A stretch of 39,374 nucleotides of DNA, taken from a virus. Within the stretch, counting starts at the first letter, position 1, and each line of letters opens with the position of its first letter. The notes under the pieces are model-generated. The model was not told the DNA's origin and searched no databases. It was given only the letters and a program-made list of their open reading frames with translations. The stretch spans positions 1 through 39,374 of IMG/VR virus record IMGVR_UViG_3300028800_000037. One strand, given 5' to 3'. Positions 7,817 through 21,049 of the stretch are shown one piece after another. The translations under genes and the position numbers were made by a program.

Positions 7817-8143
7817 TTAACATGTCAGCGAACAAATTAAATAAACAACCAAGCTAGGGATGCCAAGACAAAGTGCCGTCAACTTTAACCCCCCACTTTC
7901 CCAAGAATAACTTTTTTCAAAAAAAACAAAAAACATTATAATTGCAATAACAACCCAGACTAATGTCATTAAGGAAGCTGCTGAGGATTGAACCTTCTTT
8001 TTATAAAAATCTTCGCAATATTCTAATTCTAAAATTGTTAAATCTTCCGTAGTCTTGCAAAAGAAATCTACCGTTTTATTGTCGGCACGTCTTTGCCTTG
8101 ATTCTTCTGACTCGCGATAGCCGCCTGATGGAACATACGCCAT
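7817..8143 (-). CDS. Two-span membrane protein
   Basis: 108 residues. ATG 8143 is chosen over an upstream TTG at 8152 because it overlaps the RNA-ligase stop as TAATG. The N-terminal half is charged and soluble. Two hydrophobic spans follow, at about residues 58-77 (LMTLVWVVIAIIMFFVFF) and 87-106, joined by a short loop. The function is unknown; an early membrane protein may act in exclusion or in host membrane remodelling. Confidence 0.65.
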   Translation of the reverse strand: MAYVPSGGYRESEESRQRRADNKTVDFFCKTTEDLTILELEYCEDFYKKKVQSSAASLMTLVWVVIAIIMFFVFFEKSYSWESGGLKLTALCLGIPSLVVYLICSLTC

Positions 8144-8952
8144 TATGGACAAACCTCTTCATTTAAGAAATCTCTTACAAAATGGAATATGCTGCGCGAG
8201 CAATCTTTTTTAATTCTATCTATATCTTCCATGCTGCCCGTGATCTGCTCTTCTTTTATCAAGTCCGCGATATAATCTTTTACGATCACCGTCAACGTCT
8301 CAGGATAGCCGACAATATAACGCTCATCGCGCGATAGCAATTTCTCTAATCTCATCGGCTGCAGCAAGTAGGAGTAATCAGCAAATTCTCGGGGCTCTCT
8401 CTTAGGCTTCTTGATTCCACACCATTTTGTTTCCTCAGCCGTGAAAGTCTTTTTATATCGTTTTCCGTCAATCTCAACAACAATTCCTTCGACTTTCATA
8501 AACCCAGGCACAGCATAAGACCCATGATCTAATAGAATATCCATGACTTCGTTAATCTTTGATTGATCAACGGGCCCTTTATATAGCTCAGGAACAAATT
8601 CAACATTAGGGGGCAAAATCTTGTCAGAATATCTGTCTGGATGGCTAAATAAAAAGAATGTTCTCTCTTTCAGTCCTTCGCCAGAATTAATTCCAGGCCC
8701 AGCCCATTCGCCGTAATGTGTGCCAATCCCAAGATCTAAAAACTCTTGTACATGATCATAAACGAATCTTGCAAAGCCAAAGTTATCATCATCTGGACAA
8801 ATCCAGCGATTCCTTGATCCCGCACATAGCTTTAATTCACCCTCTTGCTCATAAACATGAACTTGAGCATTGCTGCCATGGATTTTTTGTGTGATCCGCA
8901 TAAACAATTTGCCCAAGGGCATGATTGTTGAAAATGATTGGAATTCTAGCAT
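8143..8952 (-). CDS. ATP-dependent RNA ligase family protein
   Basis: 269 residues. It has the nucleotidyltransferase motifs of RNA ligases: motif I KIHGSN at 23-28 with Lys23 as the expected AMP-accepting lysine, an Arg motif (SRNR) at 46-49, motif III-like GEWAGPGI at 81-88, motif IV EGIVVEI at 155-161 and Lys-rich motif V candidates at 164-169. This layout is that of phage RNA ligase-like proteins related to Rnl2, and it lacks a kinase or phosphatase domain. The expected reaction is sealing of 3'-OH/5'-phosphate RNA ends. It is an early gene between two membrane-protein genes. With a phage tRNA-Asn at 24431, a role in repairing cleaved tRNA is plausible but unproven. Confidence 0.85.
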   Translation of the reverse strand: MLEFQSFSTIMPLGKLFMRITQKIHGSNAQVHVYEQEGELKLCAGSRNRWICPDDDNFGFARFVYDHVQEFLDLGIGTHYGEWAGPGINSGEGLKERTFFLFSHPDRYSDKILPPNVEFVPELYKGPVDQSKINEVMDILLDHGSYAVPGFMKVEGIVVEIDGKRYKKTFTAEETKWCGIKKPKREPREFADYSYLLQPMRLEKLLSRDERYIVGYPETLTVIVKDYIADLIKEEQITGSMEDIDRIKKDCSRSIFHFVRDFLNEEVCP

Positions 8953-9421: not shown

Positions 9422-9657
9422 TCTTCATATATCCAATTAACATGTCTGACGTTTTTCTCTGGCATCTTGCCATTTTCAGTGATAACAATGCATCCTGTGA
9501 TCGGGCCATACTCAGCATGTGACCATGAATTTACGCACCTAATACGGTTCGCAAAATATCCAAAAGCCAGCCAGCACACCATGCAAATCAAGACAAATTT
9601 TCCAATGTTATTTGAAGCCCATTCAAAAGCATTCAAAATGTGATCATATAATTTCAT
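9418..9657 (-). CDS. Single-span membrane protein
   Basis: 79 residues. A hydrophobic span at about residues 19-36 (KFVLICMVCWLAFGYF) is followed by a soluble domain with two Cys. It overlaps the genes on both sides by ATGA, so its translation is coupled to the ERF gene. The function is unknown. Confidence 0.65.
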   Translation of the reverse strand: MKLYDHILNAFEWASNNIGKFVLICMVCWLAFGYFANRIRCVNSWSHAEYGPITGCIVITENGKMPEKNVRHVNWIYEE

Positions 9658-10271
9658 TCCGCCCCCTTAAATGACTCAAGTTTCAATTTATAAGCTTGTC
9701 TGAGTGTTTTGCGATCATGGTCACTTATATTAGCATCTTGCAAATTAGGAACCAATTTAGACAGCTCATCAGCACTTTGAGCAATTGAAATCTTATCTTT
9801 CAGCTCTAAAACAAAACTAGGAACAGACGCAGACGCACGTGCAGAGGCAGGGGCAGACGCAGGCGCAGACGCAGACGCAGCATTACCATCATCATCATCT
9901 TCATCAACATTGAGCTTTAAAATGGACACTAAAGCATATCTACGCATGTAAGTGATACATGAGCCAATCCCCTGGGGGTCTTTCTTGGTAGGCGACATAG
10001 AAAAAACAGACTCCAAGTACTCGCCAGTTTCAGCGTGTACGATCATAGTTGACAGTGACACCACGTCAGCACTTTGGCCGTCAACCGGATGCTGCATAAT
10101 CAAGATCCCATGCTCAATCAAAAGGGGGTTAATATTGTCCAATATGTGACTCAAAGACGCATACTTACTTTTAAAAAAAGGATTGTTAGAGTCCTTTTGA
10201 ATCTTCGATATCCGGCCCTGAAACTGAAATAAAGCTTTTGATAAATTTACAATTGATTCGCTATGGCTCAT
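9654..10271 (-). CDS. erf: ERF-family single-strand annealing protein
   Basis: 205 residues, the usual size for ERF proteins. It anneals complementary single strands in phage recombination and genome circularisation. The family pattern is clear: FQG at 17-19, KSKYASL at 34-40, GSCITYMRRYAL at 103-114 and an acidic DEDDDDGN tract at 123-130. A low-complexity Ala/Ser/Pro linker (residues about 131-155) built from repeated GCAGAC-like hexamers joins a C-terminal helical domain. With SSB and RusA it completes an annealing, protection and resolution set. Its start overlaps the upstream stop as TAATG. Confidence 0.92.
   Translation of the reverse strand: MSHSESIVNLSKALFQFQGRISKIQKDSNNPFFKSKYASLSHILDNINPLLIEHGILIMQHPVDGQSADVVSLSTMIVHAETGEYLESVFSMSPTKKDPQGIGSCITYMRRYALVSILKLNVDEDDDDGNAASASAPASAPASARASASVPSFVLELKDKISIAQSADELSKLVPNLQDANISDHDRKTLRQAYKLKLESFKGAE
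9826..9881 (-). repeat. Hexanucleotide-rich tract in the ERF linker
   Basis: Repeated GCAGAC/GCAGGC/GCAGAG units encode alternating Ala, Ser and Pro between the ERF core and the C-terminal domain. Such tracts change length by slippage, so linker length probably varies among relatives. Confidence 0.75.
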
Positions 10272-18544: not shown

Positions 18545-18550
18545 GCGCAA

Positions 18551-21049
18551 GTGATAGAGCTAAGCCCTGAGCAGAAAGGGCTTGTCTCCTCTCTTAGCAT
18601 TAGAGACGTAGCGAAAGCAGAGCTGCTGGGCAGTTTTCTGCTTTTTGCGCGTGTGTTCTTCAAGCTTAAGACGGGGCGCGAGTTCGTCATATCTAAGCCT
18701 CCAGGCAGGGAACCGCACGTTATAACAATGGCGCGTGAGCTTAAGGCTGTCTTCAACATGGAGACAAAGCGCCTGCTGATGAACGTTCCCCCTGGATATC
18801 ACAAGTCAACAATATTATGCCTTTGGGTAGCCTGGTGTTACGCCAATCATCCTGACTGCAACTTTTTATATATAAGCGTCGCTTATGAACTGGCGGAAAA
18901 GCATACCGCGTTCATCAAAGAAATTATGGAGCTGAGCGAGTACAAATCCTTTTTTGGCGTACATTTGCGAAGCGATAGCAAGTCTAAAGGAAAGTTCAAA
19001 ACTGAATCTGGCGGGGCTTGTGTTGCGTTCGGTGCCAAAGGCGCAGTTGTCGGGAATGATGCAGGGCTGCCAAATCTCTCGCGCTTCTCTGGCTGCGTGA
19101 TTATGGATGATATGCACTCTCCCGCTGATTGCTTCTCTGACACGATGAGGCAAGCGGTAATAGACAACTTTCTGTCAACAATCAGACAGCGCCCCCGTGG
19201 CTCCAATGTCCCAATCATCTTCATTGGTCAGCGTCTTCATGAGCAAGATTTGCCAGCATATTTCATTGATGGCCGTGAGGGCTACGATTGGAAGAAAGTC
19301 ATATTAAAATCGCTTGATGACAATGATAATCCGCTCTATCCCGAAGTCTTCCCCAAAGAAATGCTTGAGATAATGCGCAGGACTGACGAATACACATTTT
19401 TTGCCCAGCACCAACAATGCCCACAACCCGCAGGGGGTGGTATCTTTAAGCGTGATTGGTTCCCATTAACAGACATGGAGCCGCCAATTATTAGCACTTT
19501 CTTAACAATAGACACTGCAGAAAGCGATAATAATTGGTCTGATTTTACTGCCCTTAGCTTTTGGGGCATTTATAAGATTGAGAATCGAGGCATTGAAACA
19601 GGCATGTATGGGATACACTGGCTTGATGCGAGGCAGATCCGGATTGAGCCGAAAGATTTGGAAGCAGAGTTCTATGATTTCTATATGGGGTGCATGAGGC
19701 ACAGAGTCAAGCCCGATAAGGTATTAATCGAGAAGAAATCAGCCGGTACCACTTTGGTATCAATCCTAAAGGGAGTGGCTGGGATGCACGCAATACCAAT
19801 CGAGCGCAACGCTGGGGGTGGTAACAAAACCGCTAGATTCTATGAGTGTCAGAAATATATCGCATCTGGAAGAATAACGCTTCCTAGACTTGGCAGGCAT
19901 ACCGAAATGTGTCTAGAGCATGTTAGAAAGATTACTGGGAATAATTCACACGCGCACGATGATTTATGTTTCGTGGCTGGCACTGAAATAGCTACGCAAT
20001 ATGGGTATATGAATATTCAAGACATTAAAATAGGAGACAAAGTTTTAACGCCTTTTGGTTTGGGTAATGTAATAGATAGCAAAAAGACTGGAGAATTCCC
20101 TGTTGTCAATAAAGCTGGATTGATTGGGACAGCACGACATCCTATTTTTGCAAATAATAACTTCTTGCCTCTAATGAGCGTGGATGATACGATGACATTT
20201 GATAAGTTATCATTTAAGGGATTTGTTGGATGGCGATTAAAAACATTATTGTATTTAATGGAATCAGATATTCTCTCGCCCCGACGGGAAGATATTACAG
20301 AACTAGCTCAAAAAAGAGTAAATATAAACTCCTTCATAGAGATATATGGTCGTTTTATACTGGAAAGGAAATACCGGAAGGTTTTCACATTCACCATAAA
20401 GATCATAACCGAATCAATAATGAGTTTGAAAATTTGGAGTGCATTCGTCGCGGGGAACATTCGGCAATCCATAATAAAAAAAGATCGATTGATTGGTCAA
20501 AAATGGAAAAAATGTGGGCTAAATCTGCTGAATATATGGTCAGTGAAAAAGGCAAGTCAGAAAAAAGAGAATTGGCTAAAAAGATTTTTACTCCCACCCT
20601 CCCAGTTAAATGCAGTAACTGCCATGCCGAATTTATGCCCGTCAGATTCCAGCATCATCTATGCTCAAGCGAATGCGGGAGATTGTGGAGGAATAAACTT
20701 AGAAGAGAAAAATACGAAAAACTTGAATTCTTTACGGCAATTTGCGCATTTTGCGAACAAGAATTCACAGCAAAACGAACATTCTACAATCAATCAAACA
20801 GCAAAACATGTTCCAGATCATGCGCCAGAAACCATGGCCATGAACTCAGTTTACAATCTAACAGTTGAAGCCTATGGCGTTTACTATGCCAATGATATTT
20901 TGGTATCAAATTGCGATACTCTTGAAATGGCTTGCAGAGCGGTCTTTATAGATGAGTCTTTGCTTCCTTACACCAGCCCCAACACGGCTATCTTGACTAA
21001 ACTTTCAAACGACGTTAACAAATTGGCAGCCCTTCGGGCACGGGGATAA
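18551..21049 (+). CDS. Large terminase subunit interrupted by an intein
   Basis: 832 codons; removal of the 315-residue intein leaves a 517-residue TerL, the normal size. It is the packaging motor: ATPase plus nuclease. Visible motifs are a divergent Walker A, NVPPGYHKST, at 78-87; Walker B, VIMDDM, at 183-188; a coupling motif, FIGQRLH, near 224-230; and the nuclease acids Asp321 (TIDTAE), Glu394 (IEKKSAG) and Asp470/Asp471. The intein begins at Cys473, between HDDL and CDTL of the third nuclease motif. Translation starts at GTG 18551 with no strong ribosome site, six bases after the preceding stop. The P22-like portal follows. Splicing must occur for a functional nuclease domain. Confidence 0.93.
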   Translation: MIELSPEQKGLVSSLSIRDVAKAELLGSFLLFARVFFKLKTGREFVISKPPGREPHVITMARELKAVFNMETKRLLMNVPPGYHKSTILCLWVAWCYANHPDCNFLYISVAYELAEKHTAFIKEIMELSEYKSFFGVHLRSDSKSKGKFKTESGGACVAFGAKGAVVGNDAGLPNLSRFSGCVIMDDMHSPADCFSDTMRQAVIDNFLSTIRQRPRGSNVPIIFIGQRLHEQDLPAYFIDGREGYDWKKVILKSLDDNDNPLYPEVFPKEMLEIMRRTDEYTFFAQHQQCPQPAGGGIFKRDWFPLTDMEPPIISTFLTIDTAESDNNWSDFTALSFWGIYKIENRGIETGMYGIHWLDARQIRIEPKDLEAEFYDFYMGCMRHRVKPDKVLIEKKSAGTTLVSILKGVAGMHAIPIERNAGGGNKTARFYECQKYIASGRITLPRLGRHTEMCLEHVRKITGNNSHAHDDLCFVAGTEIATQYGYMNIQDIKIGDKVLTPFGLGNVIDSKKTGEFPVVNKAGLIGTARHPIFANNNFLPLMSVDDTMTFDKLSFKGFVGWRLKTLLYLMESDILSPRREDITELAQKRVNINSFIEIYGRFILERKYRKVFTFTIKIITESIMSLKIWSAFVAGNIRQSIIKKDRLIGQKWKKCGLNLLNIWSVKKASQKKENWLKRFLLPPSQLNAVTAMPNLCPSDSSIIYAQANAGDCGGINLEEKNTKNLNSLRQFAHFANKNSQQNEHSTINQTAKHVPDHAPETMAMNSVYNLTVEAYGVYYANDILVSNCDTLEMACRAVFIDESLLPYTSPNTAILTKLSNDVNKLAALRARG
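19967..20911 (+). mobile_element. Intein in the large terminase (residues 473-787)
   Basis: Block A is CFVAGTEI at the start with nucleophile Cys473. Block B is GTARHPIF, with the Thr and His of the TxxH motif. Block F is VYNLTVEAYG at about 767-776. Block G ends LVSN with Asn787, followed by extein Cys788. The penultimate residue is Ser instead of the usual His. The joined exteins would read HDDL-CDTL, restoring the conserved TerL nuclease motif. No in-frame endonuclease domain is recognisable between blocks B and F. That stretch instead overlaps an HNH gene in another frame. Confidence 0.92.
20230..20868 (+). CDS. HNH homing-type endonuclease nested out of frame in the intein
   Basis: 212 residues, read in the frame one base ahead of the intein. 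HNH core: LLHRDIW at 34-40 and HIHHKDHNRINN at 53-64, then NLEC at 68-71, with the paired His, Asp and Asn expected of the betabetaalpha-metal site. Two Cys4 clusters follow (Cys128/131/145/149 and Cys172/175/194/198), likely zinc-binding DNA-recognition modules. ATG 20230 has AAGGG ten bases upstream, so independent translation is plausible. Its stop lies within the intein's block F codons. It probably cuts intein-less terL alleles to spread the element. The frame overlap is seen; homing is inference. Confidence 0.9.
   Translation: MAIKNIIVFNGIRYSLAPTGRYYRTSSKKSKYKLLHRDIWSFYTGKEIPEGFHIHHKDHNRINNEFENLECIRRGEHSAIHNKKRSIDWSKMEKMWAKSAEYMVSEKGKSEKRELAKKIFTPTLPVKCSNCHAEFMPVRFQHHLCSSECGRLWRNKLRREKYEKLEFFTAICAFCEQEFTAKRTFYNQSNSKTCSRSCARNHGHELSLQSNS

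What the first reader, a model, noticed from the sequence alone, without database searches (positions are those of the whole stretch)
18551..21049. Terminase intein whose endonuclease is a complete HNH gene in another reading frame
Seen: intein blocks A, B, F and G lie in frame with TerL, and a 212-residue HNH protein with its own ATG and AAGGG site lies at 20230-20868 in a different frame. The intein frame stays open for about 213 codons through the HNH gene; with equal base use, the chance of no stop is about 4 in 100,000. Standard inteins carry a nuclease in frame, inserted between splicing blocks, or none. Here the two functions are separate products from the same DNA, so the host protein needs splicing while the nuclease is made alone. 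The overlap even runs into block F. Relatives may show the same layout.
Basis: partly seen in the sequence, partly recalled or inferred. Interest (0 to 1): 0.93.

Follow-up and report, generated by a model that had tools for sequence, protein, structure and literature searches.

The report
Intein with overprinted out-of-frame HNH gene
A self-removing protein insert in a phage DNA-packaging gene carries, in another reading frame of the same DNA, a complete gene for the DNA-cutting enzyme that probably spreads it, and the same two-in-one layout turns up at about 130 other phage and prophage loci, where it seems not to have been recognised.

Summary
The TerL gene (18551-21049) holds a 315-residue intein (19967-20911) whose blocks A, B, F and G are in frame. 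A 212-residue HNH protein with its own SD-ATG (20230-20868) lies nested in another frame. I found the same layout at about 133 loci (IMG/VR, GTDB MAGs, three named phage genomes): 126 use the window's frame, 7 the other. In 93 clusters sharing under 60% identity the host frame has 0 stops where 229 are expected if synonymous codons are permuted. Free-standing or split relatives show 207 against 193 expected. HNH residues, zinc fingers and starts are conserved; slippery sites are not enriched. AlphaFold gives a confident Hint fold broken by a low-confidence overprinted stretch, and a confident HNH fold.

Mobility is visible. L002 carries the intein in phage DNA 96-98% identical to six intein-free contigs, with exon changes clustered within 25 nt of the junction. 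L160 and L161 share a 96% identical HNH in TerLs that are 76% identical.

Best reading: a protein-splicing homing element whose nuclease is translated separately from an overprinted frame. The same HNH family also occurs between halves of split TerL inteins and free-standing. The closest precedent (ShiLan) is out-of-frame but not an intein. Splicing, expression and cleavage are untested.

The parts
18551..19966 (+). TerL N-extein (472 aa: ATPase and most of the nuclease domain, ending ...SHAHDDL)
   Evidence: phrog_38 E 5e-75; junction
19967..20911 (+). Intein, 315 aa in the TerL frame, C1 to N315
   Evidence: C1, T55, H58, N315 invariant in 72 aligned inteins; Hint halves pLDDT 96-98; gp41-1 intein is the best solved relative
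19967..20005 (+). Intein block A (CFVAGTEIATQYG)
   Evidence: N-block HMM score 103.5
20117..20149 (+). Intein block B (GLIGTARHPIF, TxxH)
   Evidence: T55/H58 invariant
20216..20220 (+). Shine-Dalgarno-like AAGGG, 9 nt before the HNH ATG
20230..20868 (+). Nested HNH endonuclease gene, frame TerL-1 (212 aa); the TerL frame stays open through it and encodes the inter-block spacer
   Evidence: HNH_3 E 9e-13; pLDDT 91.7; synonymous permutation
20326..20463 (+). HNH catalytic domain (H55, H56, N64, N68, H77 invariant)
20611..20823 (+). Two CxxC...CxxxC zinc-ribbon-like motifs of the HNH protein
   Evidence: alignment
20849..20893 (+). Intein block F (VYNLTVEAYGVYYAN); its first 20 bases overlap the end of the HNH gene
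   Evidence: C-block HMM 38.2
20894..20914 (+). Intein block G (DILVSN) plus the +1 Cys codon of the C-extein
20912..21049 (+). TerL C-extein (45 aa, CDTLEMACR...) and stop
   Evidence: aligns with intein-free TerL ...HDDIADSLEMACR...

Best explanation
This is a mobile class-1-type intein in the phage large terminase whose homing endonuclease gene is overprinted on the splicing protein. One transcript is read twice. A ribosome starting at the TerL start makes a precursor in which the overlapped DNA is read only as an open spacer between the two halves of the Hint domain; the intein should excise itself to give 517-residue TerL. Another ribosome starts at the internal SD-ATG (20230) in the -1 frame and makes a free 212-residue HNH/zinc-finger nuclease, which should cut intein-free terL at the insertion site so that repair copies the whole unit. 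Purifying selection keeps the HNH protein intact and the host frame free of stops, since any host-frame stop destroys TerL. Shown: both ORFs, conserved catalytic and splicing residues, stop avoidance, conserved starts, recent gain and transfer. Inferred: splicing, separate translation, cleavage and homing.
For: Same layout in L002 and three named phages plus a gut phage contig; about 133 loci in all. Host frame has 0 stops where 229 are expected in 93 clusters; non-overprinted homologs 207 vs 193. Blocks found by HMM without using openness: stops are 0 or at least 4, never in between. HNH-frame ATG before the conserved domain in 75 of 82 loci vs 14 expected; slippery heptamer 10 of 90 loci vs about 6 of 84 expected. 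SD of 5 nt or more 31% vs 11% in controls. Structures, HNH nearest I-HmuI. Mobility: L002 vs L004-L009, L160 vs L161. HNH aa identity averages 0.65 in 26 pairs, with the host frame lower in every pair.
Against: No transcript, protein or cleavage data. Half of the nested starts lack a strong SD. This copy's openness alone is only P about 0.015. The class was partly collected by openness, though block-based classification agrees. The host frame is slightly more conserved than the unused frame (+0.022, higher in 21 of 26 pairs), so some peptide-level constraint cannot be excluded.
Confidence: 0.86

Rival explanations
1. Sequencing or assembly indels broke an ordinary in-frame HNH intein into two apparent frames.
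For: In-frame HNH inteins of a related kind exist (L143, L145, L146; dCTP deaminase intein of CL131, PMC6293099).
Against: Needs two compensating indels per genome in more than 100 independent contigs and named phage genomes, nearly always with the same offset; own ATG in 75 of 82 vs 14 expected; stop avoidance.
Confidence: 0.01
2. The HNH domain is made by programmed -1 frameshifting as a TerL/intein-N/HNH fusion, not from its own start.
For: In most loci the HNH frame is host -1, the direction of common frameshifting.
Against: A stop in the HNH frame lies just upstream of the ATG in the window; slippery heptamers are at background (10 of 90 vs about 6 of 84); ATG strongly enriched; SD enriched; 7 loci use the opposite offset.
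Confidence: 0.06
3. The HNH protein is a terminase-associated packaging nuclease (HK97 gp74-like role), not a homing enzyme.
For: Free-standing members sit next to terS/terL (BP10, PAE1, SN1).
Against: Phages 96-98% identical to L002 lack it; the HNH moves between divergent TerLs; inteins with this HNH also sit at another TerL site (L044) and in a protein without a terminase match (L148); nearest solved structure is a homing endonuclease.
Confidence: 0.06
4. The open host frame is a chance by-product of the HNH sequence; the intein is dead or the HNH is a remnant.
For: Frame +1 is the low-stop frame for this HNH (207 vs 565 stops in the two frames of non-overprinted homologs).
Against: 0 vs 229 expected stops; none of 32 non-overprinted clusters is open by chance; C1, TxxH, N315 and HNH residues invariant.
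Confidence: 0.02

Closest known systems
ShiLan element: out-of-frame HNH in phage DNA methylase (Arsenault, Gosselin and Gogarten 2025, PMC11855218)
   Same: HNH endonuclease hidden in a frame different from an uninterrupted host gene; mobile; host frame open
   Different: ShiLan has no intein blocks and no predicted splicing; here a complete Hint intein surrounds the HNH, so the host protein can be restored
Full-length inteins with in-frame HNH (e.g. CL131 dCTP deaminase intein, PMC6293099; loci L143, L145, L146)
   Same: Hint halves flank an HNH_3 nuclease at the usual endonuclease position between blocks B and F
   Different: Nuclease is in frame and part of the precursor there; here it is a separate ORF in another frame
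Fractured genes: split inteins with an endonuclease gene between the halves (Dassa et al. 2009, cited in PMC6892783 and PMC7090010; MIJ3 PolB with HNH)
   Same: Nuclease is a separate protein encoded between intein N and C parts; best solved relative of this intein is the natural split intein gp41-1; the same HNH family occurs in split TerLs (L020 and about 12 others)
   Different: Here the precursor is one continuous ORF (cis-splicing) and the DNA is read in two frames
LAGLIDADG TerL inteins of mycobacteriophages (PMC5050341)
   Same: Intein in TerL with a homing nuclease
   Different: LAGLIDADG nuclease in frame
I-HmuI, HNH homing endonuclease (1u3e)
   Same: HNH region; only solved relative found by sequence (E 1e-4)
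   Different: Known as an intron-encoded enzyme; low overall fold similarity

Membership tests
Intein (class 1 type) | Nucleophile Cys1 at block A | tested here: met
   C1 invariant in 72 aligned
Intein (class 1 type) | Block B TxxH | tested here: met
   T55, H58 invariant
Intein (class 1 type) | Terminal Asn and Cys/Ser/Thr at +1 | tested here: met
   SN|C in the window; N315 invariant in 72; +1 Cys or Ser in the listed loci
Intein (class 1 type) | Hint fold | tested here: met
   pLDDT 96-98 for residues 1-80 and 290-315; Foldseek top hits inteins
Intein (class 1 type) | In-frame insertion into an extein with an empty homolog | tested here: met
   L003-L011 intein-free; L002 vs L004-L009
Intein (class 1 type) | Protein splicing activity | not testable with these tools
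   needs expression
HNH homing endonuclease | HNH catalytic residues and zinc-binding cysteines conserved | tested here: met
   H55, H56, N64, N68, H77, C128, C131, C145 invariant; HNH_3 E 9e-13
HNH homing endonuclease | Presence/absence in near-identical hosts and sequence change at the junction | tested here: met
   7 changes within 25 nt of the insertion, none at 25-75 nt on either side
HNH homing endonuclease | Site-specific cleavage of the empty site | not testable with these tools
   needs biochemistry
Full-length intein with in-frame endonuclease domain | Endonuclease in the intein reading frame | tested here: not met
   HNH offset +2 to TerL
Fractured gene / split intein | Precursor encoded in two ORFs separated by the nuclease gene | tested here: not met
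   One ORF of 832 aa, 0 stops
ShiLan-type out-of-frame HNH insertion | Out-of-frame HNH in an element without splicing blocks | tested here: not met
   Blocks A, B, F, G present

The most novel reading that the evidence does not exclude
Overprinted inteins are a widespread, long-lived class in phage terminases, and they are the evolutionary source of fractured split inteins: a stop or frameshift in the overprinted host frame, with new starts, turns a cis-splicing overprinted intein into a trans-splicing split intein with a nuclease gene between the halves.
Probability: 0.35. Interest if true: 0.9.

Novelty: new variant of a known kind. Interest (0 to 1): 0.83.

Why it matters
Textbook inteins carry their nuclease in frame, in a separate gene between split halves, or not at all. 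A fourth layout, two proteins from two frames of the same DNA, conserved across divergent phages, is a rare case of long overlapping genes in which each frame's job is known: one must fold and cut, the other must merely stay open. It separates nuclease dose from TerL dose, ties loss of the host frame to loss of an essential protein, and suggests how natural split inteins may arise. It is hidden by gene callers that drop nested ORFs: the records of TJE1, Highwayman and LS06 list only TerL there, and PHROGs appears to hold the spacer reading as a family of unknown function.

Tried and rejected
(1) Sequencing error: rejected by independent relatives. (2) Equal-base-use probability as proof: replaced by synonymous permutation; for this copy alone only P about 0.015. 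(3) Programmed frameshifting: slippery heptamers at background. (4) Comparing synonymous divergence in HNH with that in TerL exteins to measure dual-frame selection: confounded, because intein and extein have different histories; kept as mobility evidence. (5) Host-frame peptide conservation: small excess over the unused frame (+0.022), but only 2 non-overprinted pairs as control, so inconclusive. (6) HNH tree (FastTree): overprinted and split classes cluster, free-standing members are scattered; support weak and the window's own place unsure, so no direction of change is claimed from it. (7) One related-loci run used the wrong frame and one script failed (repeated). (8) Dassa et al. 2009 is not in the paper library, so its details rest on citing papers and my own knowledge.

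Full report
WHAT IS THERE. The window is a 39,374-base virus record. The TerL ORF at 18551-21049 (832 aa) matches terminase families (phrog_38, E 5e-75) and is followed by a P22-type portal gene. Inside it lies a 315-residue intein, 19967-20911: block A CFVAGTEIAT, block B GLIGTARHPIF, block F VYNLTVEAYGVYYAN, block G DILVSN, then Cys. The exteins are 472 and 45 aa, so spliced TerL is 517 aa. Intein-free relatives read straight through the site (...SHAHDDIADSLEMACR...; the window's joined exteins read ...SHAHDDLCDTLEMACR...). The insertion site is at the conserved HDD motif of TerL. Within the intein, in frame TerL-1, lies a 212-aa HNH_3 protein (20230-20868; E 9e-13) with AAGGG 9 nt upstream of its ATG. 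Its last 20 bases overlap block F.

IS IT MORE THAN CHANCE? For this copy alone, permuting synonymous codons while keeping the HNH protein and its codon usage predicts 2.7 host-frame stops, P(0) about 0.015. That is suggestive, not proof. Relatives decide it. L002 (TerL exteins 66% identical to the window) has the same layout with the same offset, as do Acinetobacter phage Highwayman, Tetrasphaera phage TJE1, Rhodobacteraceae phage LS06 and a gut phage contig. Scans with the HNH alignment in viral contigs and GTDB genomes, with the phage records, gave 85 loci (the window included) with an intein C-block, by pattern or HMM, and an open host frame. A scan with one HNH gave 47 more, and L123 adds one: about 133, with a few near-duplicates. 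126 use the window's offset; 7 use the other (L046, L073, L083, L178, L181, L183, L184).

STOP AVOIDANCE. After clustering below 60% identity, 93 window-type HNH genes have 0 host-frame stops against 229 expected by synonymous permutation; four other-frame clusters have 0 against 35.6. The 32 clusters that are free-standing or sit in split inteins have 207 against 193, with none open. The class had partly been collected by openness, so I also called intein blocks with HMMs that ignore openness: among HNH genes in another frame than the flanking blocks, stop counts in the block frame are 0 or at least 4, with nothing between. The preferred offset is the cheap one. In it, stops arise only where an HNH codon ending TA precedes A or G, or one ending TG precedes A (Leu, Ile, Val, Met codons), and non-overprinted homologs average 6.5 stops there against 17.7 in the other frame.

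WHICH FRAME IS SELECTED FOR WHAT? Across 26 independent pairs the HNH frame averages 65% amino-acid identity and the host frame is lower in every pair. The host frame is only slightly above the unused frame (+0.022; 21 pairs up, 3 down). So the HNH is the conserved protein and the host frame is mainly kept open. AlphaFold agrees: intein residues 1-80 and 290-315 are predicted at pLDDT 96-98 as a Hint fold, while much of the overprinted stretch is below 50, apart from a helix at about 134-190. The HNH protein is predicted at mean 91.7. The best solved intein relative by sequence is gp41-1, a natural split intein; the nearest HNH structure is I-HmuI.

HOW THE NUCLEASE IS MADE. An HNH-frame ATG precedes the conserved domain in 75 of 82 testable loci against 14 expected. 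Slippery heptamers occur in 10 of 90 loci against about 6 of 84 expected. Strong SD matches (5 nt or more) occur at 31% against 11% of control ATGs; half of the loci have no 4-nt match, so coupling or weak initiation may operate there. Own-start translation is favoured over frameshifting; this is inference until measured.

MOBILITY. L002's flanking DNA is about 96-98% identical to intein-free contigs L004-L009 over up to about 7 kb, and its exteins are 98-99% identical to theirs, yet only L002 has the intein. Against L005, seven differences lie within 25 nt of the junction and none at 25-75 nt on either side. They change I-A-D-S to V-C-D-T, bringing the Cys needed at +1. This looks like a recent gain with short co-conversion. 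L160 and L161 share 96% identical HNH proteins with 0 of 40 fourfold differences, in TerLs that are 76% identical with 65% fourfold differences, which indicates transfer between phages.

WIDER FAMILY. The same HNH family occurs (i) overprinted in a continuous intein; (ii) as a gene between the halves of a split TerL intein (Lactobacillus phage CL2, L067, L129, L089, L052, L110 and others; Brochothrix phage BL3 keeps only an HNH remnant); (iii) free-standing beside terS/terL (BP10, PAE1, SN1). More distant HNH proteins sit in frame in long inteins (L143, L145, L146). Hosts are mainly TerL (53 of 64 match phrog_30251 and 49 phrog_2; 52 match Pfam Intein_splicing), but L044 has the intein at another TerL site and L148 in a protein without a terminase match. 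L029 and L042 carry a second intein-type stretch with an in-frame LAGLIDADG domain as well. Because overprinted and split members are near neighbours in the tree, and going from open to stopped is far easier than the reverse, overprinted inteins may give rise to split ones. That is a hypothesis.

NOVELTY. Literature searches found in-frame HNH inteins (PMC6293099), split inteins with an HNH gene between (PMC6892783) and the ShiLan out-of-frame HNH that is explicitly not an intein (PMC11855218), but no intein with an out-of-frame nuclease. Only openly licensed papers are held, so an unseen description is possible. I class it as a new variant of a known kind: a homing intein with a new genetic architecture.

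LIMITS. There are no expression, splicing or cleavage data. The collection scans were capped, so no prevalence is claimed. The tree is weakly supported. The test of host-frame peptide constraint lacks good controls.

Noticed in passing
L020 (Lactobacillus phage CL2) 506-2771; also L041, L052, L067, L068, L069, L089, L098, L110, L113, L115, L129, L135: TerL encoded in two pieces with intein N and C halves flanking a separate HNH gene of the same family: unannotated split terminase inteins.
   Followed up: partly
L213 (Brochothrix phage BL3) 705-2585: Split TerL intein (gp2/gp3) with only a C-terminal zinc-finger remnant of the HNH gene overlapping the gap.
   Followed up: partly
L029:1203-4784 and L042:1140-4847: One ORF appears to carry two intein-type stretches, one with an in-frame LAGLIDADG domain and one with an out-of-frame HNH.
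   Followed up: no
L148:1169-2779 (Dermatophilaceae MAG): Overprinted intein in a host protein with no terminase match; both alternative frames are open.
   Followed up: no
window 18545-21046 vs PHROGs: phrog_30251 (TerL, 799 aa) and phrog_35162 (unknown function) appear to be database families that include the spacer reading of overprinted inteins.
   Followed up: partly
L143, L145, L146: Long ORFs (1313-1705 aa) in bacterial MAGs with an intein-like insert and an HNH domain in frame.
   Followed up: partly
L111:3421-5156: Intein N-block and C-block lie in different frames around the HNH: a possible frameshifted or split intermediate.
   Followed up: no
window 8143-8952 (-): RNA ligase family protein (phrog_548, E 3e-23) near an Erf-like annealing protein gene (9654-10271, -).
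   Followed up: no
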